A stretch of DNA of 64,000 bases, taken from Pseudonocardia sp. SCN 73-27. GTDB lineage: Bacteria > Actinomycetota > Actinomycetes > Mycobacteriales > Pseudonocardiaceae. Each line of letters opens with the position of its first letter. Position 1 is the stretch's first letter. Positions 36,327-57,511 of this stretch are shown piece after piece. Under the pieces are notes generated by a model, which worked only from the letters and a program-made list of their open reading frames with translations, was not told the origin of the DNA and made no database searches. The stretch covers positions 99,964 through 163,963 of the forward strand of contig MEGH01000004.1 in assembly GCA_001725415.1 (NCBI GenBank), written 5' to 3'. A program made the position numbers and the translations under genes.

Positions 36327-37169
36327 GTGACGAGCACGCAGGACCTGCAGACCGTCGTCGCCGAACACGATCGCGGACGCGTCGTCGCGATCGACTCGGC
36401 CTACGACGTCGACGACCGCAACACCGGACGCGACGTCGTCGTCTCCGCGTCGTACTCCGGTGTGCTGCCCGCCCGGTTCGTCGCCGACCGGCGGCCCCGC
36501 GCCGCCATCGGCCTCGACTGCGGGATCGGCCCCGAGGGCGCCGGGATCGCCGGGCTCTGGTTCTACGAGGCGCTCGGCATCCCCGCCGCCACCGCCGACG
36601 TCAACGGTGTCCTGCTCGGCGACGGCGTCGACGTCCACACCCACGGGCGGGTCAGCCGGGTCAACGCCGTCGCCGCCGCGTGCGGCGTCACCGTCGGAAT
36701 GCCGGTGGCCGACGCCGCGATGCTCCTGCTCACCACCGACCCCACCGCGAAGGCGCCGTCGGAGATCACCAACCGCACCGTGATGGAGGAGGGTCCCGGC
36801 GGGCGCGCCGTCGTCTGCACCGACTCCATCGCCTTCGGAACCCCGGCCGACCGTGACACCAACGTGCTCGTCACCGCCGGGCACACCGGCCGCTCCAGCG
36901 TCCCGTACCTGCGGAAGTTCCGGCCCTACGGCTTCATCTGTTCCGACGGCGGGCGCGGCCGGGACGACTCCGGCGTCGCCGGGCTCGCGATCGTCGAGGC
37001 CGACGGGCTCGCCGGCGCATGCGTCGACGCCCGCACCGCGATGATGGGTGACGGACTGTCCAGCTACCGCGACGGCGTCGTCTCCGCGCGCAACGCCCTC
37101 GCCGCCGCGCGCGGGGTCGAGGTCGGGATGGCCGCCCGCGACGCAGCCCACCTGCTGCTGTTCCGGTGA
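36327..37169 (+). CDS. uncharacterised internally duplicated protein, paralogue A
   Basis: A 280-residue protein of unknown function, made of two copies of a ~100-residue unit. Each contains [AG].(Y/H)(S/T)G, then G(V/I)AGL, a GDG or similar loop, a G(R/V)(V/S)S.(V/R)NA helix and a final GV.VGM..(A/R)DAA.LLL. The GTG at 36327 is chosen over one at 36318 because AGGGGAA would lie right against the latter. It overlaps the EthD gene by GTGA. A second copy of the family is at 56642. There is no signal peptide or membrane segment. Confidence 0.8.
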   Translation: MTSTQDLQTVVAEHDRGRVVAIDSAYDVDDRNTGRDVVVSASYSGVLPARFVADRRPRAAIGLDCGIGPEGAGIAGLWFYEALGIPAATADVNGVLLGDGVDVHTHGRVSRVNAVAAACGVTVGMPVADAAMLLLTTDPTAKAPSEITNRTVMEEGPGGRAVVCTDSIAFGTPADRDTNVLVTAGHTGRSSVPYLRKFRPYGFICSDGGRGRDDSGVAGLAIVEADGLAGACVDARTAMMGDGLSSYRDGVVSARNALAAARGVEVGMAARDAAHLLLFR

Positions 37170-37807
37170 TCACCCGGTTCGGGCTCGCGCCCCGGCTCGC
37201 ACCGCTGTCGGTGCCGGCGTTCCAGGACCACTGGCGCGACCGGCACGGCGCCGTCATCGGCGTGCTGCCCGGGCTGCGCCGGTACTGGCAGAACCACGCC
37301 CTGGCGTCGACGCTGCCGTGGCCGGGTTTCGACGCCTGCTCCGAGATGGACGCCGACGACGTCGCCGCCTTCGACGCCGCCTTCGAGCACCCGCACTACC
37401 TCGATGCGGGACGGGCCGACGAGCGCCGGTTCGTCGACCGCAGCGGCGGCGGAGCGGTGCTCACGGAGCGGGTCGCGGGCGCGATGTCCGAGCCGGTCGG
37501 CGTCCGGCTGCTGACGTTGATGCGCAGCGCACCCGGCGTCGCCACCGGGGACCTGGCCGCGGTCCTCGCCACCCCGGGGCGCGGTGGCGCCGCGACGGCT
37601 GTCGAGGCGTTCGTCCGGCTCCCGCAGCTGCCGGGGATCGTCGACGCCGTCGAGGCGCTCTGGTTCCCGTCCGCCGACGAGGCGCTCGCCCACCTCGGCT
37701 CGGAGGCCGCCGAGGCCGACCGGCGCGCGCTGTCCGGGCGGGTGGCCGCGACGGAGCGGGTACTCGCCGCGGTCCACGTCGTCCCGCTCGGTCAGCTGCG
37801 CGAGTAG
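37166..37807 (+). CDS. EthD-domain protein, likely duplicated
   Basis: A 213-residue protein. The first half has the EthD signature FQDHWRDRHGAVIGVLPGL with the trailing RRYWQNH; the second half has a weaker copy (QLPGIVDAVEALWFPSADEALAHL), so it is probably two ferredoxin-like domains. EthD-type proteins bind or convert small hydrophobic molecules, and some are decarboxylases or cyclases; the exact role is unknown. It is coupled to paralogue A by a GTGA overlap. Its last 16 bp overlap the convergent NTF2-like gene. Confidence 0.82.
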   Translation: MITRFGLAPRLAPLSVPAFQDHWRDRHGAVIGVLPGLRRYWQNHALASTLPWPGFDACSEMDADDVAAFDAAFEHPHYLDAGRADERRFVDRSGGGAVLTERVAGAMSEPVGVRLLTLMRSAPGVATGDLAAVLATPGRGGAATAVEAFVRLPQLPGIVDAVEALWFPSADEALAHLGSEAAEADRRALSGRVAATERVLAAVHVVPLGQLRE

Positions 37808-38331
37808 GCCTGCCACGTCGGCAACGACTCGGGGATGTCGGCGGGGGCCGGCTCGGTCCCGGGCCAGCGCCGGCGCAGTGTCCCGGCCAGCACGTCGGGA
37901 AGCTCCGCCAGGGGAGCGGCGTAGAGCTGCAGCGCCCGCCGCGACACGAACCGCCAGCGGCCCTCCTCGCGCCGGTACACGTCGAGATAGCGCAGCGCGA
38001 CCACGAACGGCGTCGGCAGGATCGCCAGCTCCGCGTGTGCCGAGACGACGCCCGTCGCGTCGTCGGGGCCGGTGAACTCGATCGTGTGGCTGTGCGGGTA
38101 GTGGTAGGTCATCCCGTAGCGGTCGAGCTGGCCGCGGTAGTAGTCCATCACCGCCGCGCGGCCGGTCATCGGGCCGTCGGTCGAGTCGAACACGGCGTCC
38201 TCGGTGTAGAGCGCGACCACTCCGTCGACGTCGCGGTCGTCGAGCAGCCTGCCGTAGACGGCGACCAGCTCACCCAGCTCGGCGCGGTCCTCCAGCCGCC
38301 GGATACGTGCTTCGAGGTCGTCGTCGCGCAT
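37792..38331 (-). CDS. SnoaL-like (NTF2-fold) protein
   Basis: A 179-residue protein. The N-terminal helix pair with LVAVYGRLLDDRDVDGVVALYTEDAVFDS and the strand RRALQLYAAP are typical of the SnoaL-like dehydratase/isomerase fold (NTF2). These are small cavity proteins that act as isomerases, cyclases, dehydratases or hydrolases. The ~40-residue tail (LRRRWPGTEPAPADIPESLP) is an extension. It is divergent from the crotonase operon, with box 3 between them. Confidence 0.82.
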   Translation of the reverse strand: MRDDDLEARIRRLEDRAELGELVAVYGRLLDDRDVDGVVALYTEDAVFDSTDGPMTGRAAVMDYYRGQLDRYGMTYHYPHSHTIEFTGPDDATGVVSAHAELAILPTPFVVALRYLDVYRREEGRWRFVSRRALQLYAAPLAELPDVLAGTLRRRWPGTEPAPADIPESLPTWQAYSRS

Positions 38332-38456
38332 CGTTGCCCGCTTCCGTTGTCCGGCCGAATCCAGGGTGATAGTAATCAGTGTATTGGCGAGCCAGCGAGC
38401 GAATCATCGGCACAGCGCCCGCGCGCGGCGCCGAGCTCGCGCAGCGAAGGAGAGCG
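38332..38456. promoter_or_regulatory. divergent promoter with AT-rich box 3
   Basis: GTAATCAGTGTATTGGC (38372-38388) lies 41 bp from the leftward NTF2-like gene start and 69 bp from the rightward crotonase start. It matches the box consensus with one extra base between the halves. AAGGAG (38447-38452) is the crotonase ribosome-binding site. Confidence 0.6.
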
Positions 38457-39230
38457 ATGAGCGACGGTTCCGGAGATGTGACGGTCGAACGACGAGGCGA
38501 CGTGACCTGGATCCGGCTGAACAGGCCGGACCGGATGAACGCCTACGACGCCGCGATGGGCCGCGAGCTCACCGACGCCGTCCGCGACGCCTCCGACGCC
38601 GGGGTGATCGTCCTGACCGGCAGCGGCCGCGCCTTCTGCGCCGGCGGCTACCTCGCCAACCTCACCGACCCGGACCCCGAGGAGCTGCGCGGCATGTTCT
38701 ACGCCTCGCTGGAGCTCTTCGACGTCATCCGCAACTCGCCCCGGCCCGTCATCGCCGCCGTCAACGGAGCGGCCGCCGGCGGGGGCAACGAGCTCGTCGT
38801 CGCCTGCGACCTCGCCATCGCCGCCCGCAGCGCCAAGCTCGGCCAGACCGGCCCCCGCGTCGGCAGCGCACCGGTCCTCGGCGGGACCAACCTGCTCGCG
38901 ATCTCGGTGGGGGAGAAGCGCGCCAAGGAGATCTCCATGATGTGCCGGCGCTACACCGCCGAGCAGGCCATGGAGCTGGGCTGGCTCAACGCGGTCGTCG
39001 ACGACGACGAGCTCGAGGCCGAGGTGACCCGCTGGGCCGACGAGCTCCTCGCGCTCTCCCCGCGCTACCTGGAGATCGCGAAGATCAGCTCCAACGTGTG
39101 GTGGAACGCCTGCCGCGACAACTACGTGTCCGGGCTCGGGATGCTGGTGCAGGCCATCGGCTCGCCCGACATGCGCGAGGGCGCGTCGGCGTTCATGGAG
39201 AAGCGCGCACCTCGCTTCCGGGACCTCTGA
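38457..39230 (+). CDS. crotonase-family hydrolase/lyase, BadI/MenB-like
   Basis: A 257-residue crotonase-fold enzyme. GSGRAFCAGG and GAAAGGGNELVVACD form the oxyanion holes. The segment SAKLGQTGPRVGSAPVLGG, with CRRYTAEQAMELGWLNAVV after it, resembles MenB and BadI, which close or open rings by Dieckmann-type chemistry, more than ordinary enoyl-CoA hydratases. This suggests ring opening of a cyclic 2-oxoacyl-CoA. The start is ATG with AAGGAG 4 bp upstream. It overlaps the ligase gene by TGATG. Confidence 0.85.
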   Translation: MSDGSGDVTVERRGDVTWIRLNRPDRMNAYDAAMGRELTDAVRDASDAGVIVLTGSGRAFCAGGYLANLTDPDPEELRGMFYASLELFDVIRNSPRPVIAAVNGAAAGGGNELVVACDLAIAARSAKLGQTGPRVGSAPVLGGTNLLAISVGEKRAKEISMMCRRYTAEQAMELGWLNAVVDDDELEAEVTRWADELLALSPRYLEIAKISSNVWWNACRDNYVSGLGMLVQAIGSPDMREGASAFMEKRAPRFRDL

Positions 39231-40861
39231 TGCAGACCTACCGCGACCTGCGCCTGACCTTCCCCGACCGCGCCACCTGGACATTGCCGTCGGTCCTGCG
39301 CCACCGTGCCACGACCCACGCCGACGCCGTCTTCCTCGACGTCCCGTTCCAGGACACGAAGCTGACCTACGCCCAGACCCTCGACGCGGCCGAACGCGTC
39401 GGCGGGGCGCTGCTCGCGGGCGGCTGCGTCCAGGGCGACCGGGTGCTGATCATGGGCGCCAACAGCGTCGAGTACCTCCTCGCGTGGATGGGCGCGTCCG
39501 TGGCGGGGCTCGTCGAGGTCCCGATCAACACCGCCTACCGCGGCACGTTCCTCGAACACCAGGTCCGCACGGTGTCGCCCAGCGCCGCGGTCGTCGACCC
39601 GGAGTTCGTCGAACATTTCCTGACGCTCGACGCCGCGCGTTCGGTGAAGACCTTCTACGTCACCGGAGCCGCGGGTCCCGCGATCGCGGCGCTCCGGGAG
39701 GCCGGCTGGTCTGCCGAACCGTTCTCCGCGCTCACCGGCGCCGACCGCCCCGCATCGCTGCCCGGGGTCGCCGCCTCCGACCTCGCCGCCATCCTCTTCA
39801 CCAGCGGCACCACCGGCCTGTCCAAGGGCGTGATGATGCCGCACGCCCACTTCCACTTCTTCGCCGACGAATGCGTCTCGCTCTGCCGGATCACCGACGC
39901 CGACGCCCACATGGCCGTCGGCCCGCTCTTCCACGGCAACGCCCAGTTCCTCGCCTGCTACCCGGCGATGATCGTCGGCGCCCGGTTCGTGCTGCAGCAG
40001 CGGTTCAGCGCCTCACGCTGGGTCGACCAGCTGCGCGACTCGCAGGTGACCGTCACCAACTTCATCGGCGTGATGATGGACTGGGTCCACAAACAGCCCC
40101 GCCGCGACGACGACGCCGACAATCCCCTGCGCTGCCTCTACGCCGTCCCGCTCGCCACCTCGATCGCCCCGGACTTCAAGGCGCGCTTCGGGATCGAGGC
40201 GTTCGTCGAGAACTTCGGGCTCACCGAGATCTCCATGCCGATCCTCACCCCCTATGGCGCGGAGCGGCCTCCCGGCGCCGCCGGGGTGCTCGTCGAGGAC
40301 TACTTCGACGTCCGGCTCGTCGACCCCGAGACCGACGAGGAGGTGCCCGTCGGCGAGGTCGGCGAGCTCGTCGTCCGCGCGCACCTGCCGTTCACGATGA
40401 CGTCCGGCTACTACGGGATGCCCGAGCGCACCGTCGAGGCCCAGCGCAACCTGTGGTTCCACACCGGCGACGGCCTGCGCCGCGACGCCGACGGCTGGTA
40501 CTACTTCGTCGACCGCCTCAAGGACGCCCTGCGCCGCCGCGGGGAGAACATCAGCTCCTTCGAGGTCGAGCAGCCGATCCTCGCCCACCCCGGCGTGGTC
40601 GACTGTGCCGTCGTCGGCGTCCCCGCCGACTCCGAGGCGGGCGAGGACGAGATCCTCCTCGTGGTCGTTCCCGAGGAGGGCGTGACCCTGACGGCGGCGG
40701 AGGTGTGGGAGTGGTGCGAGCCGCGGCTGCCCGCCTTCGCGATCCCGCGCTACGTCAGGATCGCCGACGCCCTCCCGATGACGCCGTCGGGAAAGGTTCG
40801 CAAGCTGGAGCTCCGCGAACAGGGCGTCGACGCCGCGACCGCGGACCGCGAGACCCGGTGA
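39230..40861 (+). CDS. acyl-CoA synthetase (CaiC-like AMP-binding)
   Basis: A 543-residue AMP-forming ligase. The motifs are LFTSGTTGLSKGVMMPH, FGLTEISMP, WFHTGDGLRRDADGWYYFVDRLKDALRRRGENIS and the catalytic-lysine end MTPSGKVRK. It resembles carnitine/crotonobetaine-CoA ligase-like proteins that activate unusual carboxylates. Its start overlaps the BadI-like crotonase stop, so activation and ring opening probably act one after the other on the same acid. Hairpin copy D lies 17 bp after its stop. Confidence 0.88.
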   Translation: MQTYRDLRLTFPDRATWTLPSVLRHRATTHADAVFLDVPFQDTKLTYAQTLDAAERVGGALLAGGCVQGDRVLIMGANSVEYLLAWMGASVAGLVEVPINTAYRGTFLEHQVRTVSPSAAVVDPEFVEHFLTLDAARSVKTFYVTGAAGPAIAALREAGWSAEPFSALTGADRPASLPGVAASDLAAILFTSGTTGLSKGVMMPHAHFHFFADECVSLCRITDADAHMAVGPLFHGNAQFLACYPAMIVGARFVLQQRFSASRWVDQLRDSQVTVTNFIGVMMDWVHKQPRRDDDADNPLRCLYAVPLATSIAPDFKARFGIEAFVENFGLTEISMPILTPYGAERPPGAAGVLVEDYFDVRLVDPETDEEVPVGEVGELVVRAHLPFTMTSGYYGMPERTVEAQRNLWFHTGDGLRRDADGWYYFVDRLKDALRRRGENISSFEVEQPILAHPGVVDCAVVGVPADSEAGEDEILLVVVPEEGVTLTAAEVWEWCEPRLPAFAIPRYVRIADALPMTPSGKVRKLELREQGVDAATADRETR

Positions 40862-40878
40862 GCAGGCCTGCGGCCCTC

Positions 40879-40918
40879 GTGAGTGGCGTTATTGGCTATA
40901 GCCAATAACGCCACTCAT
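40879..40918. terminator. 40-bp hairpin terminator (hairpin family, copy D)
   Basis: Left arm GTGAGTGGCGTTATTGGCT (40879-40897) and right arm 40900-40918 pair over 19 bp with a terminal G-U. It lies 17 bp after the ligase stop and 77 bp before the end of the leftward SDR gene. Confidence 0.85.
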
Positions 40919-40995
40919 CCGTGCGGGCGCGAGGCGCGCTCACGTGCATGTCGGCGCCGCCCCACCATCGCGCGCAACCTCATTGCTGCAGGGGG

Positions 40996-41802
40996 TTACG
41001 AGGCGACCCAGCCCGCGTCGACGGGGAAGACCTGGCCCGTGATCATCCTGGCCTCGTCGGAGGCCAGGTAGACGACCATCGAGGAGATGTCGTCGACGGT
41101 CACGTGGCCGCGTTCGCCCTTGAACATGTTGTTGGCGTTGAAGTCGACGAACGCGGCGTCGGAGTCGACGCCGAGCTGCCCGGCGATCCCGGTGATCATG
41201 CCGGTGTAGATGGTGCCGGGGGCGATGCCGTTGACGTTGATGCCCCACTCGGAGAGCTCGTTGGCCCAGCTCCTGGTCGCGAGCACGACGCCGCCCTTGG
41301 CCGCGGCGTAGTGCGACACCTGCGGCAGGGCCTTGAGCCCGCCCGCCGACGACGTGTTGATGACCTTGCCCGATCCTTGTGCCTTCATGATCGGCGCGAT
41401 GAACCGCATGGTGTTGAAGATGCCCTTGAGGCAGACGTCGATGACGGCGTCGAGGCTCTCGTCGGAGATCTCGTCGACGGCTTCGACGATGCAGACGCCG
41501 GCGTTGTTGCAGAGGATGTCGATGGTGCCGAAGCGGTCGACGGCGGTGGCGACGGCCTCGCGCATCTGGGCCGAGGAGCGGACGTCGGCCTGGATGGCGA
41601 TGGCCTCGGAGCCGATCTCCTCGACGGCGGCGACGGTGGCGTCGAGCTCCTCGCGGGTGGCGAGGGGGTAGATGGGTTTGATGTCCTCGCAGATGTCGAC
41701 GGCGACGATCTTCGCGCCCTCACGGGCGAGGTACTTCGCGTGCGAGGCACCCTGGCCGTGTCCGGCCCCGGTGATGAAGGCGACCTTGTCCTTCAGCTTC
41801 AC
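40996..41802 (-). CDS. mycofactocin-coupled short-chain dehydrogenase
   Basis: A 268-residue SDR of the mycofactocin-coupled family. The diagnostic N-terminus KLKDKVAFITGAGHGQGASHA, then VAVDICEDIKPIYPLATREEL, distinguishes it from ordinary SDRs. In this family the NAD is held tightly and reoxidised through the peptide-derived redox cofactor mycofactocin. YxxxK is YAAAKGG. The start is GTG at 41802, with GGGGGAAC upstream. It is third in an operon after a substrate-binding protein and a flavoprotein, so it oxidises a sterol- or terpene-alcohol-like imported compound (inference). Confidence 0.9.
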   Translation of the reverse strand: MKLKDKVAFITGAGHGQGASHAKYLAREGAKIVAVDICEDIKPIYPLATREELDATVAAVEEIGSEAIAIQADVRSSAQMREAVATAVDRFGTIDILCNNAGVCIVEAVDEISDESLDAVIDVCLKGIFNTMRFIAPIMKAQGSGKVINTSSAGGLKALPQVSHYAAAKGGVVLATRSWANELSEWGINVNGIAPGTIYTGMITGIAGQLGVDSDAAFVDFNANNMFKGERGHVTVDDISSMVVYLASDEARMITGQVFPVDAGWVAS

Positions 41803-41816
41803 TGTGTTCCCCCTGT

Positions 41817-43415
41817 TCAGAGTCGTTCTGCCACCAGCAACCCCAGCGTGATGGCGCGGCTCAGTGAGAAGCCGCTGTTGTAGGCGGTGCCCGACGACGT
41901 GAACGCCGCCGCGGCGCCCGCCGCGTGCAGACCCTCGACCGGCTGTCCGGTCGAGGTGAGGACCTGGCCGCCGGGGTCGACGGCGATGCCGGTGAGCCCG
42001 ATCCCGGTGCTGACCATGGTGAGCCGCATGCCGAAGAAGGGTGGCTCGTCGACGGGTCCGAGGTTGGGGTGCGCCATCGACGGGTCGCCCTGGAAGCGCT
42101 GCCACGTCGTGTTGGTGCCGCGCCCGAACTCCGGATCGGACCCCGATGCGACATCGGCGCTGAAGCGGGCAGCGGTGGCCTCGAGTGCGTCGCCGTCGAT
42201 GCCGAGTGCCGTGCCGAGCTCCCGCAGCGAGGGCGCCGACGACACGACCTCCGGCGGGTAGGTCCCGCCGGGTGGGGTGGGGCCGAGGCCGTAGCGCTGG
42301 TGGTGCCGGGAGTCCCAGATCATGAAGCAGGGCAGGTGCTCGCTGCCGGGCTCCAGGGTCGACTTGGCGATCTCCCAGTAGACGGCGTCGTCGCAGAACC
42401 GCTTGCCCGTCCGGTCGACGACGAACGTGTGCGGCAACGAGTGCTCGCGGGCGACCTGGAACCCGGGGTAGCCGTCGACGGGGTAGCCGACCTGCACGGG
42501 CACCCGGTTGGCCGGGATCTCGACGACCGCGCCCCCGGCCTGGCGGGCCAGCCGGATGCCGTCACCGGTGAGCGTGCGGGGTGCGACGCTGCCGCGGTCG
42601 GCGGGCTTGAGGCCGAGGAAGTCGTGGGCGAGGTCGTCGTCCCAGTCGTAGCCGCTGGTGGCGAGGACGACGTCGCCGTCGAGGATGCGCCGCGCCCCGT
42701 CGGCGGTGGCCGCGACCACCCCGACGACGCGGCCGTCGTCGAGGCACAGCTCGACCGCGGTGTGCCCCAGCAGGATCTCGACGCCTCGTTCGAGGGCGGC
42801 GACGAGGAACCCGGCGACGACGCCGGTGCCGAAGGTCAGCCGGTCCTGGGGTGGCGGCGAGGATGCGGAGGAGGCGCCGAACGCCGACGCCCGCAGCCCG
42901 GCGCCCAGGATATCGGCGTAGGTGGTGCCGACGGGGAAGTGCGGTGAGACGCGCAGCCGGTCGCGCCAGGGGCCGAGGCGCCGGGCGTCGTAGGTGGCGG
43001 TGAGGTAGCGGCCGGTGGGCCGGGAGCCCGGCGCGTCCTGGTGGTAGTCGGGGTAGTCCGGGATGATCTCCCAGGTCACCGCGCCGGCGTCCTCGAACCA
43101 GCGTGCGGCGCGCGGTGCCTCGGTGAGCCAGCGGGCCAGGGCGGCGTCGTCGATGAGCTCGGGGTGCGAGGCGCCGACGGCGCGGACGTACTGTTCGGCG
43201 GCGCCGAGGTCGTCCTGGATGCCTTGTGCCGCTTCGAGATGGTTGGCCGCGACCCAGACCTGACCGCCGGAGAAGGACGCCGCGCCACCGGCGAGGTCGC
43301 CCTTCTCCAGCACGGTCACGGCGATGCCGCGGTCGGCGGCGGCGACGGCCGTCGCGAGACCGGCGAGGCCGGCCCCGACGACGACCGCCGTGCGCGCACC
43401 GGGGGAGTGCGTCAC
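41817..43415 (-). CDS. FAD-dependent oxidoreductase, KSTD/fumarate-reductase-flavoprotein family
   Basis: A 532-residue flavoprotein. The N-terminal dinucleotide fold is VVVGAGLAGLATAVAAADRG, and GTAYNSGFSLSRAITLG near the C-terminus resembles the FAD-binding end of 3-ketosteroid delta-1-dehydrogenase-like enzymes. It would remove hydrogens from a ketone ring or reduce a double bond. The ATG overlaps the binding-protein stop by 4 bases; the SDR follows 14 bp on. Alternatives are other succinate dehydrogenase/fumarate reductase-like dehydrogenases. Confidence 0.85.
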   Translation of the reverse strand: MTHSPGARTAVVVGAGLAGLATAVAAADRGIAVTVLEKGDLAGGAASFSGGQVWVAANHLEAAQGIQDDLGAAEQYVRAVGASHPELIDDAALARWLTEAPRAARWFEDAGAVTWEIIPDYPDYHQDAPGSRPTGRYLTATYDARRLGPWRDRLRVSPHFPVGTTYADILGAGLRASAFGASSASSPPPQDRLTFGTGVVAGFLVAALERGVEILLGHTAVELCLDDGRVVGVVAATADGARRILDGDVVLATSGYDWDDDLAHDFLGLKPADRGSVAPRTLTGDGIRLARQAGGAVVEIPANRVPVQVGYPVDGYPGFQVAREHSLPHTFVVDRTGKRFCDDAVYWEIAKSTLEPGSEHLPCFMIWDSRHHQRYGLGPTPPGGTYPPEVVSSAPSLRELGTALGIDGDALEATAARFSADVASGSDPEFGRGTNTTWQRFQGDPSMAHPNLGPVDEPPFFGMRLTMVSTGIGLTGIAVDPGGQVLTSTGQPVEGLHAAGAAAAFTSSGTAYNSGFSLSRAITLGLLVAERL

Positions 43416-44798: not shown

Positions 44799-44843
44799 AT
44801 GACCGCGCGCGTTCCGTCCGACCAGGTCGGACGATCCACGTGA
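44799..44843 (+). CDS. 14-residue leader peptide coupled to livH
   Basis: The open frame MTARVPSDQVGRST has an ATG behind an excellent GGGAGGT ribosome-binding site, and its TGA (44841-44843) overlaps the GTG start of the permease gene as GTGA. The permease GTG itself has only a weak ribosome-binding site. This looks like a short leader that couples translation of the permease to ribosomes loading at the leader. It has no run of one amino acid and so is not a classic attenuator. Confidence 0.5.
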   Translation: MTARVPSDQVGRST

Positions 44844-48629: not shown

Positions 48630-48648
48630 CGGGCGAGAGGGGGAACAG

Positions 48649-49827
<1,179 letters not shown>

Positions 49828-49874
49828 TCCGGTCGAACATAGGGCAGGGCCAGGAACCATCCGAAAGGAATCAC

Positions 49875-50639
49875 GTGGACATCGCAGGCATCTCGGCCGT
49901 CGTGACCGGCGGCGCCTCCGGGCTCGGGCTGGCCACCGCGCGCCGGCTCGTCAAGGCGGGGGCGAGCGTCGTCCTGCTCGACCTGGAGTCCTCGCCCGGT
50001 GCCGAGGCGGCCGCCGAGCTGGGGGACCGCGCGCGGTTCGTCGTCGGTGACGTCCGCACCGAGGAGGGCGTCACCCCGGCGCTCGACGCCGCCGCCGAGC
50101 TGGGGCCGCTGCGCGCGGTCGTGCACTGCGCGGGCCGCGGGCACGCCATGCGCGTCCTGCAGCGCGACGGCAGCCCCGGCTCGCTCGAGGACTACGCGTC
50201 GATCATCGAGCTCAACCTGGTCGGCTCGTTCAACGTGCTGCGCCTCGCCGCGGCGCGGATGGCGCAGCTCGACCCGGTCGACGGCGAGCGCGGCGCGATC
50301 GTCATGACCGCGTCGGTCGCGGCGTGGGAGGGCCAGATCGGCCAGATCCCGTACGCGTCGTCGAAGGCGGGCATCGTCGGCATGACGATCGTCGCCGCGC
50401 GCGACCTCGCGACCAAGCAGATCCGGGTGGCGACGATCGCGCCCGGCATCTTCGACACGCCCCTGCTGGGCAGGCTTCCCCAGGAGGTGCGCGACTCGCT
50501 GGGCAAGATGGTGCCGCACCCCAACCGCCTCGGCGCGCCCGACGAGTTCGGCGCCCTGGCCGTCCACGTCCTGGAGAACCCGATGATCAACGGCGAGACG
50601 ATCCGCCTCGACGGCGGCATCCGTATGGCGCCTCGATGA
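49875..50639 (+). CDS. short-chain dehydrogenase, HSD10/3-hydroxyacyl-CoA type
   Basis: A 254-residue SDR with [18 protein letters not shown] in place of NNAG and YASSKAG (catalytic Tyr-Lys). LLDLESSPG favours NAD(H). The insert [49 protein letters not shown] (summarised here by its start, [13 protein letters not shown]) resembles human HSD10-like 3-hydroxyacyl-CoA dehydrogenases. It would oxidise the 3-hydroxyacyl-CoA before the thiolase. GTG start; its stop overlaps the crotonase gene by 4 bases. Confidence 0.85.
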
Positions 50640-51448
50640 ACGCCCCGCAGACCAACGGCACCGCGCCCGCCACGACCGAGACCTCGCCGGGTCTGCTCGT
50701 CGAGCGCGACGGGCCCGTCCTGGTCCTCACGATCGACCGGCCCCGGCGGCGCAACGCCGTCGACCTCGCCACGGCCCGGCTGATCAGCGCGGCCATCGAC
50801 GAGCTCGACGAAGACCCCGAGCTGAGGGTCGGGGTGCTGACGGGCTCGTCGGGCTTCTTCTCGGCCGGCATGGACCTCGCGGCGTACTCGGCGACCGGGG
50901 AGCGTCCCGTCGACGAGCGCCGCGGTGGGTTCGGCATCGTCGGCGTCCCGCCGCGCAAGCCGATCATCGCCGCCGTCGAGGGCCCGGCACTCGGCGGCGG
51001 CTTCGAGATCGCCCTGGCCTGCGACCTGGTCGTCGCGGGGGAGGGGGCGTCGTTCGGGCTGCCCGAGGTCAAGCGCGGCCTGGTCGCCGCGGGTGGCGGG
51101 GTGCTGCGGCTGCCGCGACTGGTGCCGCGCAACGTCGCGACCGAAGCCGTCCTCACCGGTCGCCCGTTGACGGCGTCGCGGTGTGTGGAGCTGGGCCTGG
51201 TCAGCCGGGTCGTCCCCGACGGGGGCGCGCTCACGGCGGCGAAGGAGCTGGCCGCCGAGATAGCGGCGAACGCGCCGCTGGCGGTGCAGGCGTCGAAGGC
51301 CGTGATGACGGCGTCCGCGCTGTGGCCCGACGACGAGCTGTTCACCCGGCAGGAGCCGATGCTCGCCGAGGTGCGGACGTCGGAGGACGCCAAGGAGGGG
51401 GCGCGCGCGTTCGTCGAGAAGCGGGCGCCGCGCTGGCAGGGCCGATAG
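50636..51448 (+). CDS. enoyl-CoA hydratase/isomerase family (crotonase)
   Basis: A 270-residue crotonase. The oxyanion-hole sites are [15 protein letters not shown] and [35 protein letters not shown] is typical of hydratases with the glutamate in LPEVKRG. An N-terminal ~20 residue tail is Thr/Pro/Ala-rich. It likely hydrates a 2-enoyl-CoA for the preceding SDR and thiolase. It is the last gene of the transporter-beta-oxidation operon; a hairpin follows 23 bp later. Confidence 0.87.
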
Positions 51449-51471
51449 ATCATGCCCCCTGTGGGCCCGGC

Positions 51472-51495
51472 CTGACGGACCGCGAGGTCCGTCAG
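51472..51495 (+). terminator. hairpin terminator of the transporter/beta-oxidation operon
   Basis: Perfect 10-bp arms CTGACGGACC (51472-51481) and GGTCCGTCAG (51486-51495) with a 4-base GCGA loop, 23 bp after the crotonase stop and 44 bp before the cold-shock gene. Confidence 0.8.
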
Positions 51496-51539
51496 AGAGA
51501 CTGTGGGCCTGTGCCCGCCCTCTCGACCTGGAGCCTTCG

Positions 51540-52487
51540 ATGCCGCAGGGGACCGTCCGTTGGTTCGACGCCGGACGGGGTTTCGGCTTCCTCGCGCCCG
51601 GGGACGGCTCGCCGGACGTGTTCGTGCACGCCTCCGAGATCGTCGGGAACGGCGGCGCGAACGTGCTCCGCGAGGGTCAGGCCGTCGAGTTCGAGGTCGG
51701 CGAGAACGACCGCGGGCCCCAGGCGCTGCGCGTTCGCGTCACCGCCGATGCGGCCACCGGCAGCGCCGTGGGCGTGCTCGGCACCGTCAACTGGTACGAG
51801 CCGGGCAAGGGGTACGGCTTCGCGTCGCCGGACGGCGGCGGCGCCGACGTCTTCGTGCACAGCTCCGCCATCGTGACCGGCGGCGTGGTCACCGAGGGGC
51901 AGCGGGTGGCCTTCCTGATCGTGGACGGCGAGCGCGGCCCACAGGCCGGGCACGTGATCCCGCTGGGCCCGGGGGCCGGCTCACCCGCTGCGGCCGGCTT
52001 CGCGGACGGTGCCGACGGCACGGTGGCCTGGTACGACGAGGACAAGGGCTTCGGCTTCATCACTCCCGACTCCGGCGCCGGCGACGTCTTCGTTCACGCC
52101 AGGGCCCTGGCCGAGGGGCTGACGTGGCTCGCGGAGGGCGACCGCGTCGCCTACGAGGAGGCCGGCGGGGACAAGGGCCCGCAGGCCCGCGACGTGCACC
52201 TGGTCCGGGGCGTCGAGCCCCGGACGGCGCCGCAGCGGTCGGCACCTGCCGCGGCCGCACGGCCGACGGCGCGGGACGTGCCCGTACGGGGCGGTGAGGG
52301 CGTCGTCGCGCGCTACGACGGCGACCGCGGCTTCGGCTTCATCACCCCGGATGCAGGCGGCGACGATCTGTTCGCCCACGTGTCCGTGATCATGGGGTCG
52401 GAGCCGCTGCAGAAGGGTGACCGGGTCCGGTACGCGGTGCGTCAGAGCGACCGGGGCCCGCAGGCCGACCGCGTCGAACGCCTCTGA
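51540..52487 (+). CDS. four-domain cold-shock protein
   Basis: A 315-residue protein made of four tandem cold-shock domains, at about residues 4-67, 81-141, 160-223 and 254-315. Each has the RNP1 (GFGF or GYGF) and RNP2 (VFVH, or LFAH in the fourth) nucleic-acid binding motifs. Normal bacterial CSPs have one domain of about 67 residues. The linkers are Ala/Gly/Pro/Arg-rich (longest before domain 4). It probably binds single-stranded RNA or DNA at several sites at once. It has no apparent link to the catabolic genes beside it. No classic CSP 5' leader is evident. Confidence 0.88.
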
Positions 52488-52520
52488 AGCGGCGGCCCCG
52501 GCGAATCGTCGGGACCAGGT

Positions 52521-53663
52521 CTAGATCTCGTCGCAGAGGGCGCGGGCGATGCCCAGCTTCAGGACCTCCGAGGCGCCCTCGTAGATGCGCATCGGGCGGG
52601 CCTGGCGGTAGTAGCGCTCGATCGGGCTGTCGGCGACGAGCCCCCAGCGGCCCATGACCTGCACGCACCGGTCGACGACGCGGCTCGCGGCCTCGGTGGC
52701 GGCGACCTTGGCCATCGACGAGCGGTTGAGCGCCCCCGCGGCGTCGCTCCGGGCGGCGGCCGCGGCCTGGTAGGTGAGCAGCCGGGCCATCTCGACGTCG
52801 TTCCACGAGTCGGCCAGCAGCTGCGCGACGGGACCGTGCCTGAGCAGGGGGCGGCCGAACTGCTCGCGGGTGCGGGCGTGCCGGGCGGCCTCGGCGAGCG
52901 CGCCGGCGGCGAGCCCGCAGGCCGCACCGGCGACGGACACCCGGAACACCGCGAGCGTGCCCAGGACCAGCGACATCGCCTTGCCGGGCACGCCGAGGCG
53001 GGCCTCCGGGGGGAGCACGACGTCGTCGAACCCGACCTCGCCGAGCACGTGCGGGGCGATCAGCTCGGGGCTGGGCGTGGTGGTCAGCCCGGGGGTGTCG
53101 GCGGGGACGAGCACGAGTGAGAGCCCGGCCTCCTCGGACACGAGCGTCACGAAGAAGTCGGCCGCGCCGGCGTTGGAGATGAACGACTTGGCCCCGCGGA
53201 CGACGAGCGAGCCGTCCTTCTCGGTCAGCGTCGTCGAGACGTTCTTGAGGTCCGACCCCGCGTTCTCCTCGGTGAGCGCGAGCGCCGCGAGGGTCTCCAG
53301 CGACGCGACCTTCGGCAGCCACTGCGCGCGCTGCTCGTCGGTACCGCCGACGGTGATCGCGTAGCTGCCGATGCCCTGCAGCGCGAACATCGAGTCGAGG
53401 TGCGAGGAGGCCCGCATGAACACCTCGCGGACCAGGCAGACCGCGAGCGGGTCGACGCTCTCGGACCGGCCACCGTAGGCGGCCGGAACCATGAGCCCGG
53501 ACAACCCGCTGGCGCGCAACGCCTCTCGGATTCCGGGGTGGATCTCGCTCATCGCGTCGGCCTCGGCGGCGATGTCGGCGACGGACGCCGCGACGGCCTC
53601 GGCCTCCTCGCGCAGGGCCACCTCAGCGGGCCCGAGACCGAACCACTTCTCCGTGGAGTCCAT
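52521..53663 (-). CDS. acyl-CoA dehydrogenase
   Basis: A 380-residue FAD acyl-CoA dehydrogenase, three-domain fold. Landmarks are LTEENAGSDLKNVSTT, ISNAGAADFF and the catalytic-base region RIYEGASEVLKLGIAR near the C-terminus with Glu. It introduces the 2,3 double bond into an acyl-CoA. The gene is single and leftward, divergent from the AhpD-like gene, with box 8 in the gap between them. It is convergent with the cold-shock gene, 33 bp apart. Confidence 0.92.
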   Translation of the reverse strand: MDSTEKWFGLGPAEVALREEAEAVAASVADIAAEADAMSEIHPGIREALRASGLSGLMVPAAYGGRSESVDPLAVCLVREVFMRASSHLDSMFALQGIGSYAITVGGTDEQRAQWLPKVASLETLAALALTEENAGSDLKNVSTTLTEKDGSLVVRGAKSFISNAGAADFFVTLVSEEAGLSLVLVPADTPGLTTTPSPELIAPHVLGEVGFDDVVLPPEARLGVPGKAMSLVLGTLAVFRVSVAGAACGLAAGALAEAARHARTREQFGRPLLRHGPVAQLLADSWNDVEMARLLTYQAAAAARSDAAGALNRSSMAKVAATEAASRVVDRCVQVMGRWGLVADSPIERYYRQARPMRIYEGASEVLKLGIARALCDEI

Positions 53664-53758
53664 GCATACTATGTTACTTTATTGGCGGGCTGAGCGACAG
53701 GACGGGCACCGTCACCCGGCCCTCCCGACCCGGTGTACTCGACGAGGAGTGGTCACCC
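53664..53758. promoter_or_regulatory. divergent promoter with AT-rich box 8
   Basis: GTTACTTTATTGGC (53673-53686) is a 2-base-shorter version of the box, inside ACTATGTTACTTTATTGGC. It lies 10 bp from the leftward acyl-CoA dehydrogenase start and 73 bp from the rightward AhpD-like gene. Confidence 0.5.
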
Positions 53759-54517
53759 ATGGCAGGCACTGTCTCGACCTCCGGCGGCCGGCGCACGGCG
53801 GAGCTGATCGGCGAGGCGTCCTGGCTTCCCCGTCTCGAGGTCTCGACGCCGAAGTTCGTCGAGGGTCTCGCCCGTGTCGCCGACGTCATCACCACCGACG
53901 GGACGCTGACCGTCGGGCTCAAGGCACTGTTCGCCGCCGCGATCTGCGCGGTCAAGCGCGACGAGGCGCTCGTCGACCACTTCCTGGCCGTCGCCGCCAA
54001 GGAAGGTGTTCCGCGCGAGCACGCCGAGGGCGCGTCGGTCGGCCTGCTGATCTCGCGGGGCGTGACCCCGCACGGGCTGTTCGTCGCGGCCACCGACCGC
54101 GCCTACGGTCCCGCCGCCTCCGGTGAGGCGGCCGCCGACGCGACCGACGGGTTCGCCGCCGACGTGCCCGGCGCCTTCGCCTATTTCCAGGAGTACTTCG
54201 GCTTCGTCCCCGACTACGTCGAGCTGCTCGGCGATCGTGTCGGCGCCGGGCTGGAGGGCTACTTCCTCATGCGCGAGTCGTCGTTGGGGGAGACGCCGTT
54301 CCCCGCGATGGACATGGAGCTGCTGCTCTGCGCGGTCAACGCCGCCGAGTACCAGCCGCGCTTCGTCGCCATCCACTCCCGCGGCGCGCGGCGCGCCGGT
54401 GCCACCGAGGAGCAGCTCGTCGAGGCCACGCTCGTCGCGATGCCGTTCGCGGGCGTCGCGAGCTGGCTGCCCGCGGCGCAGGGCGTCATCGACTCACGCG
54501 ACGTCGCCGGTTCCTGA
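53759..54517 (+). CDS. carboxymuconolactone decarboxylase/AhpD-like two-domain protein
   Basis: A 252-residue helical protein with two AhpD-like units. The first is around LFAAAICAVKRDEALVDHFL (about residues 57-100), the second around LLLCAVNAAEYQPRFVAIHSRGARRAGATEEQLVEATL (from LLLCAVNAAEY on). Each unit has one cysteine rather than the CxxC of peroxidase members, so a decarboxylase- or lactonase-like or purely structural role is possible. It leads an operon with two small NTF2-like proteins. Confidence 0.75.
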   Translation: MAGTVSTSGGRRTAELIGEASWLPRLEVSTPKFVEGLARVADVITTDGTLTVGLKALFAAAICAVKRDEALVDHFLAVAAKEGVPREHAEGASVGLLISRGVTPHGLFVAATDRAYGPAASGEAAADATDGFAADVPGAFAYFQEYFGFVPDYVELLGDRVGAGLEGYFLMRESSLGETPFPAMDMELLLCAVNAAEYQPRFVAIHSRGARRAGATEEQLVEATLVAMPFAGVASWLPAAQGVIDSRDVAGS

Positions 54518-54567
54518 CCGCCGGTTGCTGAATCCGCATCTCCCGCCACCACGAGAGGACCCCTCAC

Positions 54568-55119
54568 ATGGCCGTGCTGGATCTGAAGAAGGGCTGGGAC
54601 AGCTACGACGAGCTGGCCCGCAAGACCGAGAACCCCCGTCACAAGGCGATCCTCGAGGTCATGAAGGAGCACCTCAAGTGGGAGGTGCTCGGCTACCCGG
54701 ACAAGGTCCTGGAGACGGTGGCCGACGGCGGGGTCTACAAGTTCTGGGGCCTGGGCGCCTACGTCGAGCTCCCCGACTTCGACGCGATCCGCGGCTTCTA
54801 CCAGTCGATGGTCGACGACGGCACGAACGTGCTGCAGCTCGACATCGACCACCTCGCCGTCGCCGACTGGGGCATCGCCGCCCACGGCACGTGGCACCAG
54901 GCGTTCCCGGGCGACAAGGTGCCCGTCGTGAAGGTCGACGACCCGGGTGCGAAGTACCTCGTCAGCAGCCGGCTGGCCTGGTTCTTCCCGTTCTCCGAGG
55001 GCCCGGAGCCCAAGCTGGTCAGCGAGCTCGTCTACTTCGACCCGGCACCCACCGCGGTCCGCAAGCTCGACCCGTCGGAGAAGCTCTACGACGAGCTGTC
55101 CGAGGACGTGTTCAGCTGA
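54568..55119 (+). CDS. uncharacterised small protein, possibly NTF2-like
   Basis: A 183-residue protein with many Trp, Tyr and Phe residues (FWGLGAYVELPDFDAIRGFY, HLAVADWGIAAHGTWHQAFPG) and alternating strands after an N-terminal helical part. This composition fits the NTF2/SnoaL cavity fold, but I cannot show it by motif. It is linked to the next gene by a TGATG overlap, and that gene is a clear SnoaL-like protein. Start: ATG with GAGAGGA upstream. Confidence 0.65.
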   Translation: MAVLDLKKGWDSYDELARKTENPRHKAILEVMKEHLKWEVLGYPDKVLETVADGGVYKFWGLGAYVELPDFDAIRGFYQSMVDDGTNVLQLDIDHLAVADWGIAAHGTWHQAFPGDKVPVVKVDDPGAKYLVSSRLAWFFPFSEGPEPKLVSELVYFDPAPTAVRKLDPSEKLYDELSEDVFS

Positions 55120-55547
55120 TGTCCGGCGACGACGCCGGGGCCGCGGTGGTCACCGCGTACCTCGACGCCGTGGGGGCGCTCGACGTCGACGCGATCGTCG
55201 CGACGTTCCACCCCGACATCGTCGTGCACATCCCGTACGCACCGCCGGGGATCCCGACGGTCGTCGAGGGCAAGGCGGCGGCCACGGACTGGTTCGCCGG
55301 GCTGCCGGGACTGCTCGCGCCGATGAACTTCGCGGGCTACGACGTGCAGCCGCTCGTGGCCGAAGGTGAGTACGTCGCCGAGTACACGAGTGACTCGACG
55401 GTGCTCACGACCGGCCTGCCGTACGCCAACAGCTACATCAGCCGGTTCACGATCCGGGACGGGCTGATCATGCGGCTCGCCGAGCACTTCGACTCGGTGG
55501 CGCTGGTGACGGCGCTCGGCGGGACCGTGGAGATGCCCTCGTCCTGA
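55119..55547 (+). CDS. SnoaL-like (NTF2-fold) protein
   Basis: A 142-residue protein. VVTAYLDAVGALDVDAIVATFHPDIVVHIPY and a late NSYISRFTIRDGLIMRLAEHFDSV strand pair are typical of the SnoaL/NTF2 fold (ketosteroid isomerase-like). The class includes isomerases, cyclases and dehydratases; catalytic residues cannot be fixed here. It ends 8 bp before a 14-bp stem hairpin that probably terminates this three-gene operon. Confidence 0.82.
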   Translation: MSGDDAGAAVVTAYLDAVGALDVDAIVATFHPDIVVHIPYAPPGIPTVVEGKAAATDWFAGLPGLLAPMNFAGYDVQPLVAEGEYVAEYTSDSTVLTTGLPYANSYISRFTIRDGLIMRLAEHFDSVALVTALGGTVEMPSS

Positions 55548-55554
55548 GCGAAAG

Positions 55555-55596
55555 GCCCGGCCGGGTGGGGGTAGCCTCTGCGCCACCCGGTCGGGC
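55555..55596 (+). terminator. 14-bp stem hairpin after the SnoaL gene
   Basis: Arms GCCCGGCCGGGTGG (55555-55568) and CCACCCGGTCGGGC (55583-55596) pair over 14 bp with one G-U. It lies 8 bp downstream of the stop of the rightward SnoaL-like gene. Confidence 0.75.
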
Positions 55597-55626
55597 CCGT
55601 ACCGTTCGGTGGGCCGGATTGCTGAG

Positions 55627-55650
55627 TATTATCGTCAGGATCTGGGTCCC
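55627..55650 (+). promoter_or_regulatory. AT-rich element upstream of the GntR gene
   Basis: TATTATCGTCAGGATCTGGG lies about 60 bp upstream of the GntR start. It resembles the AT-rich box only loosely (TATC, CAG, GATCTGG). It could be the GntR gene's own -10 or autoregulatory site. Confidence 0.35.
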
Positions 55651-55697
55651 GTGACCCGGACCGATGCAGTCCGGGTGTCGCAGAACAGGGAGCCGAC

Positions 55698-56471
55698 ATG
55701 TCCGTCGTCCGCAGGGACGTCCCGCCGCGCTCGGCGCCGACGGGGATGCCGCCCAAGCGCGCCACCGTCATCGCGCAGCGGATCGTCAAGGAGATCAAGG
55801 ACCGCAACCTGGCACCGGGCAGCCATCTGCCGCCCGAGCGCGACATGCTCGAGACGTACAACGTCGGCCGCAACACGCTGCGTGAAGCGCTGCGGGTCCT
55901 GGAGCTGCAGGGCGTGCTCACGATCCGCCCCGGCCCTGGCGGTGGGCCGGTCATCACCTCGCCCGACTCGCGGCACCTGGCCAGCACGCTGGCGCTGCTC
56001 ATGCAGTTCGCCGACACCCCGTTCCGTGCGGTGATCGAGACACGGCAGCTGCTGGAGCCGATCACGGCCCGGCTGTGCGCCGAGCGCGGCGACGCCGGCC
56101 TGCTGGCCGACCTGCGCCACTCGGTCGACCGCATGGGCGAGAGCCTCGACGACCGCGACGCGTTCCTGGCCGAGAACCGCCGCTTCCACGACCTCGTGGC
56201 GTGGGGCTCGGAGAACCCGCTGTTCGGCTACTGCATCAACTCGCTGCACTGGATCACCGACGGTACGGTCCTGGGTGTCGACTACCCGCGCCGGTTCCGC
56301 AAGCTCGTCTGGCAGGCCCACGACGCGGTCTGCATCGGCATCGAGTCGGGCGAGGGCGACAAGGCCGAGGCCGCGATGCGCACGCACATGGACGACACGC
56401 TCGCGTACTTCGAGCGGCACTACCAGCGGCAGATGGACGAGGTCCTGAGCTGGGAGATGTACGGCACCTGA
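55698..56471 (+). CDS. GntR-family (FadR subfamily, FCD) transcriptional regulator
   Basis: A 257-residue regulator. The GntR winged helix (about residues 20-85) has APGSHLPPERDMLETYNVGRNTLREALRVLE. The C-terminal FCD domain holds the metal/acid-binding histidines in ENRRFHDLVAWGSENP and AMRTHMDDTLAYF. FCD proteins usually sense carboxylic acids of the pathway they control. It is a single gene between two operons that carry the AT-rich box and is the best candidate for the regulon regulator (inference). Confidence 0.9.
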   Translation: MSVVRRDVPPRSAPTGMPPKRATVIAQRIVKEIKDRNLAPGSHLPPERDMLETYNVGRNTLREALRVLELQGVLTIRPGPGGGPVITSPDSRHLASTLALLMQFADTPFRAVIETRQLLEPITARLCAERGDAGLLADLRHSVDRMGESLDDRDAFLAENRRFHDLVAWGSENPLFGYCINSLHWITDGTVLGVDYPRRFRKLVWQAHDAVCIGIESGEGDKAEAAMRTHMDDTLAYFERHYQRQMDEVLSWEMYGT

Positions 56472-56492
56472 CCCACGTCGCACCTGGCTCCA

Positions 56493-56528
56493 CGGCGCCG
56501 TCTCCCGCGTGCTGGGGAGGCGGCGCCG
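56493..56528 (+). terminator. GntR gene terminator hairpin
   Basis: Arms CGGCGCCGTCTCCC (56493-56506) and GGGAGGCGGCGCCG (56515-56528) pair over 14 bp with one G-U and an 8-base loop, 21 bp after the GntR stop. Confidence 0.75.
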
Positions 56529-56641
56529 TCGTGTGTGGCGAGACGCCCCTGGCTCCGTGCTGCTGTTAATGATATACAGAGATTCAGGCGCTGATCGGTA
56601 GTCGGCGCCTCGCATGAACGACGACGACGTCAGGACGGCGC
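56529..56641 (+). promoter_or_regulatory. promoter of the terminal operon with AT-rich box 5
   Basis: TATACAGAGATTCAGGC (56573-56589) lies in CTGTTAATGATATACAGAGATTC, 52 bp before the paralogue-B start. It shares CAGAGATT with box 2 (36174). AGGACGG just upstream of the ATG is a weak ribosome-binding site. Confidence 0.55.
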
Positions 56642-57511
56642 ATGGACGGCAAGACGCTGCTGGAGCGGGAGCAGGACCACCCGCAGGACATCGTGGTCGA
56701 GCGCGACCGCGGCCGGATCTGCACCATGGACTCGGCCCGCTACGTCGACGCCCGCAACACCGGGCGCGACGTCGTCGTCCCGGCCTCCTACGTCGGTGTG
56801 CTGCCCGCGCGGATGATGGCGATCCACCGCCCCCGCGGTGTCATCGGGCACGACGCCTGCGTCGGCAAGGACGGCGCCGGCATCGCCGGGCTCTGGTACC
56901 TCGAGGCCCTCGGGATCCCCGCCGCCACCGCCGACGGCATGACCGCCGAGATGGGCAACGGCGAGGACCTCTACACCAACGGCATCGTCAAGCACGTCAA
57001 CTACGTCGCCGAGACGTGCGGGGTCAAGCCCGGCATGCCCGTCCGCGAGGCCGCCGAGATCCTGCTGGCCAACGACCCGACCGACGTCGAGGTCGGCAAC
57101 AAGGTCCGCCGCGAGATCATGGAGACCCACCCGAGCGGGCGGCGCGTCGTCGTCACCGACTCGATCGTCTGGGCCTACCCCGAGGACGAGAACCGCAGCG
57201 TGCTCGTCACCGCCGGGCACACCGGCCGCAGCGGCGCGAAGTTCCTGCTCGAGGCCAGCCCGTGGGGCTTCATCTGCCACGACGGCGGCATGAGCAAGAA
57301 CCGCTCCGGCGTGTCCGGGCTGGTCACGGCCGACGAGGCCGGCCTCGCGGGCGCCTGCATCGACGGCACCACCGCGCCCATCGGCGACGCGTTCCTCGGC
57401 TACGAGCACGGCCTGATCAGCGCCCACAACGAGTCCGCGGCCAAGCGTGGCGTCGAGGTCGGGATGACGGTCAAGGAGGCCGCGCACCGACTGCTCGTCG
57501 GCGGGGAATAG
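56642..57511 (+). CDS. uncharacterised internally duplicated protein, paralogue B
   Basis: A 289-residue paralogue of the protein at 36327, also of unknown function. Residues 43-142 and 186-285 are two copies of the same ~100-residue unit, at a constant offset of 143. Shared points include VxxA..(V/T)G, G(F/V)I.HD, SG(V/I)(A/S)GL, GNGEDL/GDAFLG, and GV..GM.V(R/K)EAA. The two copies and the two genes show the duplication predates the gene pair. It leads an operon with DUF35, a thiolase-like protein, amidohydrolases and a CoA ligase. No membrane segment. Confidence 0.8.
   Translation: MDGKTLLEREQDHPQDIVVERDRGRICTMDSARYVDARNTGRDVVVPASYVGVLPARMMAIHRPRGVIGHDACVGKDGAGIAGLWYLEALGIPAATADGMTAEMGNGEDLYTNGIVKHVNYVAETCGVKPGMPVREAAEILLANDPTDVEVGNKVRREIMETHPSGRRVVVTDSIVWAYPEDENRSVLVTAGHTGRSGAKFLLEASPWGFICHDGGMSKNRSGVSGLVTADEAGLAGACIDGTTAPIGDAFLGYEHGLISAHNESAAKRGVEVGMTVKEAAHRLLVGGE

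What the first reader, a model, noticed from the sequence alone, without database searches (positions are those of the whole stretch)
36327..57511. Two paralogues of an unknown protein made of two internal repeats
The proteins at 36327 and 56642 are clearly related and each consists of two ~100-residue units (residues 43-142 and 186-285 in the second, offset 143). I recognise no known domain. Each leads an operon with the AT-rich box, with catabolic partners (EthD; DUF35/aldolase/amidohydrolase/ligase). They are good candidates for a new enzyme or sensor family of this pathway.
Basis: partly seen in the sequence, partly recalled or inferred. Interest (0 to 1): 0.75.

Follow-up and report, generated by a model that had tools for sequence, protein, structure and literature searches.

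The report
Unnamed two-unit enzyme family, catabolic operons
Two related actinobacterial proteins are each built from two copies of a small domain that has no model of its own in the libraries searched; the domain also occurs singly or in pairs in other bacteria and in salt-loving archaea, often beside enzymes that break carbon-carbon bonds, so it is probably a catabolic enzyme whose reaction is still to be found.

Summary
P1 (36327-37169) and P2 (56642-57511) are 55% identical; each consists of two homologous units of about 130 residues (41% and 33% identity between units, far above shuffles), under purifying selection. The unit has no model of its own in Pfam or NCBIfam and no credible PDB relative by sequence. 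P2 passes Pfam cut-offs for DUF1805 and IMS only by a short C-terminal motif summed over both units; Foldseek gives a partial resemblance to 1qw2.

The family is wider than this pathway: single, paired or fused relatives occur in Pseudomonadota, Chloroflexota, Bacteroidota, Rubrobacter and haloarchaea (386 stretches in one scan). Of the best 80 loci, 44 lie near RuBisCO-like, acid-sugar kinase, PGDH_C, BKACE or IorA genes. P2 is directly upstream of a DUF35 gene, with an LTP2-type thiolase/aldolase close by, in 15 of 15 loci examined. Unit duplication preceded the P1/P2 duplication. Ser36 is kept in unit 1, His37 in unit 2.

Best reading: a catabolic enzyme, not a sensor, doing a proton-transfer-type step on an oxo-acid or acyl-CoA intermediate beside a C-C-cleaving enzyme. 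The chemistry is inferred, not shown.

The parts
36327..37169 (+). P1: two-unit protein, 280 aa
36348..36731 (+). P1 unit 1 (residues 8-135): SY.G instead of SHGG
36774..37160 (+). P1 unit 2 (residues 150-278): GHTGR
56642..57511 (+). P2: two-unit protein, 289 aa
56681..57067 (+). P2 unit 1 (residues 14-142)
   Evidence: model
57110..57508 (+). P2 unit 2 (residues 157-289)
   Evidence: model
57516..57899 (+). DUF35 protein (zf-ChsH2 + OB_ChsH2_C), directly after P2
   Evidence: adjacency
57887..59053 (+). LTP2-type thiolase-like protein (Thiolase_C_1; best NCBIfam models 'lipid-transfer protein'/'thiolase domain', all below their cut-offs)
55698..56471 (+). GntR/FCD regulator upstream of P2
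   Evidence: conserved
37166..37807 (+). EthD protein overlapping the P1 stop
30391..31281 (+). BKACE, beta-keto acid cleavage enzyme, about 5 kb before P1
   Evidence: the same family lies near 11 of 80 single-unit loci

Best explanation
P1 and P2 are catabolic enzymes, not sensors. Each is a fused pseudo-dimer of two alpha/beta units of an unnamed family (signature DS...SHGG...NDAGxGKD...ARIGD...N). Shown: duplicated architecture, family breadth, operon partners, and which residues are invariant. Inferred: in the ancestral unit the invariant residues, several of which fall at strand ends of the model, form one pocket that carries out a proton-transfer type reaction (isomerisation or tautomerisation; hydration or hydrolysis not excluded) on an oxo-acid or acyl-CoA intermediate next to a C-C-cleaving enzyme (RuBisCO-like protein, BKACE, IorAB; here the DUF35/LTP2 pair). 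P2 probably works with, and perhaps docks on, DUF35-LTP2, the place that the MaoC hydratase takes in ChsH1-ChsH2-Ltp2. In the actinobacterial tandem branch the pocket has diverged between the halves.
For: P2 is immediately followed by DUF35, with LTP2 next or after one ligase gene, in the window, in 12 of 12 fetched relatives' loci and in 2 Rhodococcus plasmids: 15 of 15 examined (Rhodococcus USK10 and genome G490 not looked at). Best 80 of 386 single-unit stretches: RuBisCO-like 22, acid-sugar kinase 23, PGDH_C 18, BKACE 11, IorA 15, against 0, 0, 0, 1, 0 of 20 control windows. In 5 of 5 haloarchaeal plasmids the next listed genes downstream are RuBisCO-like and acid-sugar kinase. Over 86 units S36, G38, G39, D58, A59, G60, G62, A66, G67, I91, G101 are invariant; S36 and D58 lie at or just after strand ends of a model with pLDDT 97. 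D18, G39, D58 and N107 are kept in all 50 P1/P2 units scored; S36 in every unit 1, H37 in every unit 2. DUF35 joins a hydratase to its aldolase in Shy-Sal and ChsH1-ChsH2-Ltp2 (PMC11321319, passages).
Against: No convincing fold match to an enzyme (Foldseek: nothing at E <= 0.001). 36 of the 80 loci had none of RLP, DUF1537 kinase, PGDH_C, BKACE or IorA within the held DNA. The marker genes were picked from these same loci, the loci are related to each other, many are cut by contig ends, and the controls come from only four genomes; TRAP transporter genes hardly differ (13 of 80 vs 2 of 20). G38 and N57 are changed in all P1/P2 units and K63 is lost in P1; three Bacteroidota first units have Asn at D58. 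EthD is directly downstream of P1 in only 6 of 11 relatives' loci. The window's DUF35 was not found by tblastn near any of the 80 loci. No substrate, oligomer or complex was tested.
Confidence: 0.4

Rival explanations
1. Non-catalytic assembly or scaffold protein of the DUF35-thiolase pair (P2) and of other C-C-cleaving enzymes: it stabilises the complex and does no chemistry of its own.
For: Constant adjacency to DUF35; residues of the SHGG and NDAG motifs are altered in P1/P2.
Against: Single units beside unrelated enzymes (RLP, IorAB) share invariant polar residues, which a scaffold for different partners would not need; purifying selection and kept D18, D58, N107.
Confidence: 0.2
2. Small-molecule sensor: binds the pathway substrate or an intermediate and controls the regulator or uptake.
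For: First gene after the GntR/FCD regulator in the window and in 11 of 12 relatives' P2 loci; no enzyme fold match.
Against: No signalling or DNA-binding domain recognised; the GntR protein already has an FCD domain, which usually binds the ligand (established knowledge); regulators listed beside other members differ (FCD, IclR, LysR).
Confidence: 0.12
3. Hydrolase or lactonase opening a cyclic ester, or hydratase of an enoyl/oxo intermediate, rather than an isomerase.
For: A Ser-His pair (S36-H37) is invariant or nearly so in the 86 units of A3; neighbours include amidohydrolases and a dienelactone hydrolase.
Against: The Ser-His pair is divided between the halves in P1/P2; no alpha/beta-hydrolase or MaoC match to P1 or P2 in Pfam.
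Confidence: 0.2
4. Nucleic-acid function, as the Pfam name IMS (Y-family DNA polymerase) would suggest.
For: IMS score above the cut-off in both proteins.
Against: Best stretch covers only 28 (P1) or 51 (P2) of 148 IMS positions; the same motif gives the DUF1805 hit; neighbours are catabolic.
Confidence: 0.02

Closest known systems
DUF1805 (PF08827; that the solved structure 1qw2 TA1206 belongs to this family is recalled)
   Same: C-terminal strand-helix-Gly-helix motif; P2 35.2 bits over a cut-off of 29.5; Foldseek aligns 58 columns with 1qw2 at 1.9 A
   Different: Best stretch covers only 28 of 64 model positions in P2, and each stretch alone is below the cut-off; P1 has 21.3 bits; of 86 units 45 match at E <= 1, best E 5.8e-06; the SHGG and NDAG region is not covered in P1/P2; I saw no function for DUF1805 in the listings
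ChsH1-ChsH2-Ltp2 and Shy-Sal hydratase-DUF35-aldolase complexes
   Same: DUF35 and an Ltp2-type protein beside a protein of two related, diverged units (paper: ChsH2's MaoC unit lacks the catalytic residues; PMC11321319, passages)
   Different: P2 has no MaoC match in Pfam at E up to 10; its DUF35 is a separate gene; Shy works with a single MaoC unit, so doubling is no requirement
Acid-sugar catabolic clusters with RuBisCO-like protein, DUF1537 kinase and PGDH_C dehydrogenase (D-apionate type, recalled)
   Same: Single- or two-unit relatives lie inside such clusters
   Different: None of these three genes was found in the 64 kb window; only BKACE is shared

Membership tests
DUF1805 (PF08827) | Score over the curated cut-off (29.5 bits) | tested here: inconclusive
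   P2 35.2 yes, but as a sum of two stretches (21.2 and 17.5 bits alone); P1 21.3 no; Rhodococcus P2 homologue 24.7 no; 45 of 86 units match at E <= 1, best E 5.8e-06
DUF1805 (PF08827) | Match along the whole 64-position model | tested here: not met
   best stretch positions 35-62 in P2, 36-60 in P1
DUF1805 (PF08827) | TA1206-like fold | tested here: inconclusive
   Foldseek 1qw2 prob 0.87, 58 columns, TMt 0.44-0.46, E 0.21-0.27
IMS / Y-family polymerase (PF00817) | Score over cut-off | tested here: met
   25.8 (P1) and 33.5 (P2) vs 23.2 bits
IMS / Y-family polymerase (PF00817) | Palm and catalytic region, most of the 148-position model | tested here: not met
   best stretch covers model positions 31-58 (P1) and 31-81 (P2)
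MaoC hydratase | MaoC/hot-dog domain match | tested here: not met
   no such Pfam match listed at E up to 10
SHGG/NDAG unit family (defined here) | Sequence homology to the single units | tested here: met
   P2 and the Rubrobacter unit 39% identical over 124 residues, E 1.5e-21 in a small locus set
SHGG/NDAG unit family (defined here) | Aligned D18, S36-H37-G38-G39, N57-D58, K63, N107 | tested here: inconclusive
   D18, G39, D58, N107 kept in all 50 P1/P2 units; S36 or H37 kept in one half each; G38 and N57 changed in all, K63 lost in P1
SHGG/NDAG unit family (defined here) | Enzymatic activity | not testable with these tools
   needs a purified protein and a substrate

The most novel reading that the evidence does not exclude
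An unnamed enzyme family, shared by bacteria and haloarchaea, performs an undescribed step (keto-enol or positional isomerisation of an oxo-acid or acyl-CoA intermediate) coupled to C-C bond cleavage by RuBisCO-like proteins, BKACE, IorAB or DUF35-LTP2 aldolases. In actinobacteria it duplicated, fused and split its active site between the halves, and P2 forms a ternary complex with DUF35 and LTP2.
Probability: 0.25. Interest if true: 0.75.

Novelty: new variant of a known kind. Interest (0 to 1): 0.5.

Why it matters
If right, catabolic gene clusters in bacteria and haloarchaea, among them RuBisCO-like acid-sugar clusters and a DUF35/aldolase cluster, contain an enzyme step that is still listed as 'hypothetical protein', and whose short motif lets a DNA-polymerase model (IMS) match it above its cut-off. 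The invariant residues and constant partners make the step directly testable, and single-unit, paired-gene and fused forms offer a natural series for how an active site is divided after duplication.

Tried and rejected
IMS (DNA polymerase) annotation: rejected, one short motif only. PDB relatives by sequence: best E 1.1, 0.24, none. Foldseek against PDB (two models) and BFVD (single unit): nothing at E <= 0.001; the weak resemblance to SteA (prob 0.51) was not pursued. Genuine DUF1805 proteins for a profile-profile test: not obtained; 0 of 396 genomes of this phylum and 0 of 10 other genomes had a match over the cut-off. P1 and P2 as obligatory partners: 13 of 14 P2-bearing genomes also carry P1, but each of the three Rhodococcus plasmids has one place only, P2-like (their chromosomes were not searched), so not settled. 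Substrate of the pathway: not identified; in the WAY2 genome paper the words steroid, OB-fold, thiolase and P450 do not occur in the main text (PMC7276702, 12 of 20 passages shown). Literature: searches for DUF1805, TA1206, YunC, apionate and combined terms gave listings only, none of which I opened; of the papers listed I saw passages of PMC11321319 and PMC7276702. Plasmid hits: 11 of 13 records opened (H3 and H6 not). Rows dropped: three fragment hits (two in L064, one in L104) before alignment A3; L026 and the duplicate L033 before the two-unit rows; 145 units were thinned to 115 for the tree.
Full report
The observation. P1 and P2 are real, constrained genes, 55% identical over 271 residues, and each is a tandem of two homologous units. 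The halves of P2 align at 33% (E 1e-17), those of P1 at 41% (E 2e-19), far above 1000 shuffles each. dN/dS against three relatives each is well below 1. The units are about 130 residues.

Known families. Pfam gives only short stretches in the C-terminal part of the units: DUF1805 and IMS over cut-off in P2, IMS in P1; for DUF1805 neither stretch of P2 passes alone. NCBIfam gives nothing near a cut-off. PDB sequence searches give nothing better than E 0.2. AlphaFold models: P2 pLDDT 88, pTM 0.65; a single unit from a Comamonadaceae relative pLDDT 97, pTM 0.92. Foldseek finds no match at E <= 0.001; the match of highest probability among those shown is 1qw2 (TA1206; that it belongs to DUF1805 is recalled), 58 columns at 1.9-2.5 A. 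So the units may be distant kin of DUF1805; this is not established.

Distribution. Among 100 relatives' genomes 12 have a match: 10 carry P2, all among the 60 genomes of the same genus (own included), 9 of these also P1, and 2 carry other forms. In 396 genomes of the phylum 9 match. In one further family 4 of 5 genomes carry both. A scan of the one-genome-per-species collection (84,980 species) with a five-row alignment of single and SHGG-type units found 386 encoding stretches, of which the best 80 were kept: Rubrobacter, many Pseudomonadota, Chloroflexota, Bacteroidota and others. Plasmid records add Rhodococcus, alphaproteobacteria and haloarchaea, 13 records. Forms: a single unit; two adjacent genes in six alphaproteobacterial loci (one broken up), in Amycolatopsis and in one genome of the window's genus; fused tandems in Bacteroidota, haloarchaea, some alphaproteobacteria and actinobacteria.

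History. In a quick tree of 115 units (midpoint root), all first units of P1 and P2 group together (SH-aLRT 99) and all second units together (100), so duplication and fusion of the unit preceded the duplication into P1 and P2. The tool warned of few columns and of long branches meeting, and deeper forks are unresolved.

Conserved residues. In the 86 units of A3, S36, G38, G39, D58, A59, G60, G62, A66, G67, I91 and G101 are invariant, and D18, H37, N57, K63, D96 and N107, among others, nearly so. Set against the DSSP strands of the model (12-17, 31-37, 53-57, 102-106), D18, S36-H37, N57-D58 and N107 lie at or just after strand ends, as ligand pockets of such folds usually do (inference; coordinates were not inspected). 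In the 50 P1/P2 units scored, D18, G39, D58 and N107 are kept throughout; S36 is kept in all 25 first units (H37 is Tyr), H37 in all 25 second units (S36 is Gly); G38 and N57 are changed in all; K63 is lost in P1 only. Three Bacteroidota first units have Asn at D58.

Neighbours of P1/P2. P2 is directly followed by a DUF35 gene (zf-ChsH2 + OB_ChsH2_C), with the LTP2-type gene next or after one ligase gene, in the window, in 12 of 12 relatives' loci and in two Rhodococcus plasmids. In G341 ECH, ligase, P1, P2, DUF35, ligase and LTP2 form one run. P1's neighbours vary more: EthD lies directly downstream in 6 of 11 relatives' loci.

Neighbours of the relatives. Around the best 80 loci: RuBisCO-like 22, DUF1537 kinase 23, PGDH_C 18, BKACE 11, IlvD 10, IorA 15 and IorB 15, against 0, 0, 0, 1, 0, 0, 0 of 20 control windows from four of the same genomes; TRAP genes 13 and 13 against 2 and 2. 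36 of 80 have none of RLP, DUF1537, PGDH_C, BKACE or IorA. The markers were chosen from these same loci (family names), many loci are cut by contig ends, and the loci are not independent. An independent set, five haloarchaeal plasmids, has the two-unit gene followed by a RuBisCO-like gene and an acid-sugar kinase as the next listed genes in 5 of 5 (in Natrinema only a RuBisCO-like fragment is listed, about 1 kb on). Other plasmid contexts: an aromatic cluster in Aminobacter, an acyl-CoA cluster in Rhizobium, a place between replication genes and PQQ-dependent dehydrogenase genes in Ponticoccus, SDR genes in Methylovirgula. BKACE (30391-31281) is shared by the window and by single-unit loci, with 48% identity to the Rubrobacter one. 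The window's DUF35 was found near none of the 80 loci, LTP2 near one.

Mechanism. Several of the recurring partners cleave C-C bonds of oxo-acids or hydroxyacyl-CoAs (established family knowledge, not tested). DUF35 domains tie a hydratase to its aldolase in ChsH1-ChsH2-Ltp2 and Shy-Sal; in the former one MaoC unit has lost its catalytic residues and holds the bulky rings (PMC11321319, passages). By analogy I propose that P2 occupies the hydratase's position as an enzyme of the step before or after cleavage, with chemistry of the proton-transfer type. The analogy concerns how it works; membership of MaoC is not supported by sequence. Substrate, reaction, complex and oligomeric state are all untested.

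Verdict. A real, unnamed family with informative contexts; function inferred only. Interest 0.5.

Noticed in passing
window 51540-52487 (+): A 315-aa protein made of four tandem cold-shock domains (PF00313, four stretches), inside the catabolic region.
   Followed up: partly
window 36175-36186 and about 56564-56584: AT-rich elements upstream of P1 (TTATCAGAGATT) and P2 (TGTTAATGATATACAGAGATT) that recur, by eye and with variation, upstream of 5 of 11 P1 and 9 of 12 P2 relatives; the P1 element occurs exactly once in the window. Possible operator of the GntR/FCD regulator.
   Followed up: partly
L149 (Microvirga massiliensis genome): A 310-aa open frame with two SHGG-type units, in a genome that also has an adjacent pair of single-unit genes (L084).
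   Followed up: no
window 54568-55119 (+): A 183-aa open frame between the CMD and SnoaL genes without any Pfam or NCBIfam match; its conservation was not tested.
   Followed up: no
15 Bacteroidota loci between L088 and L119: iorA-iorB followed by a two-unit gene in 15 of 80 loci, an unexplained fixed partnership.
   Followed up: partly
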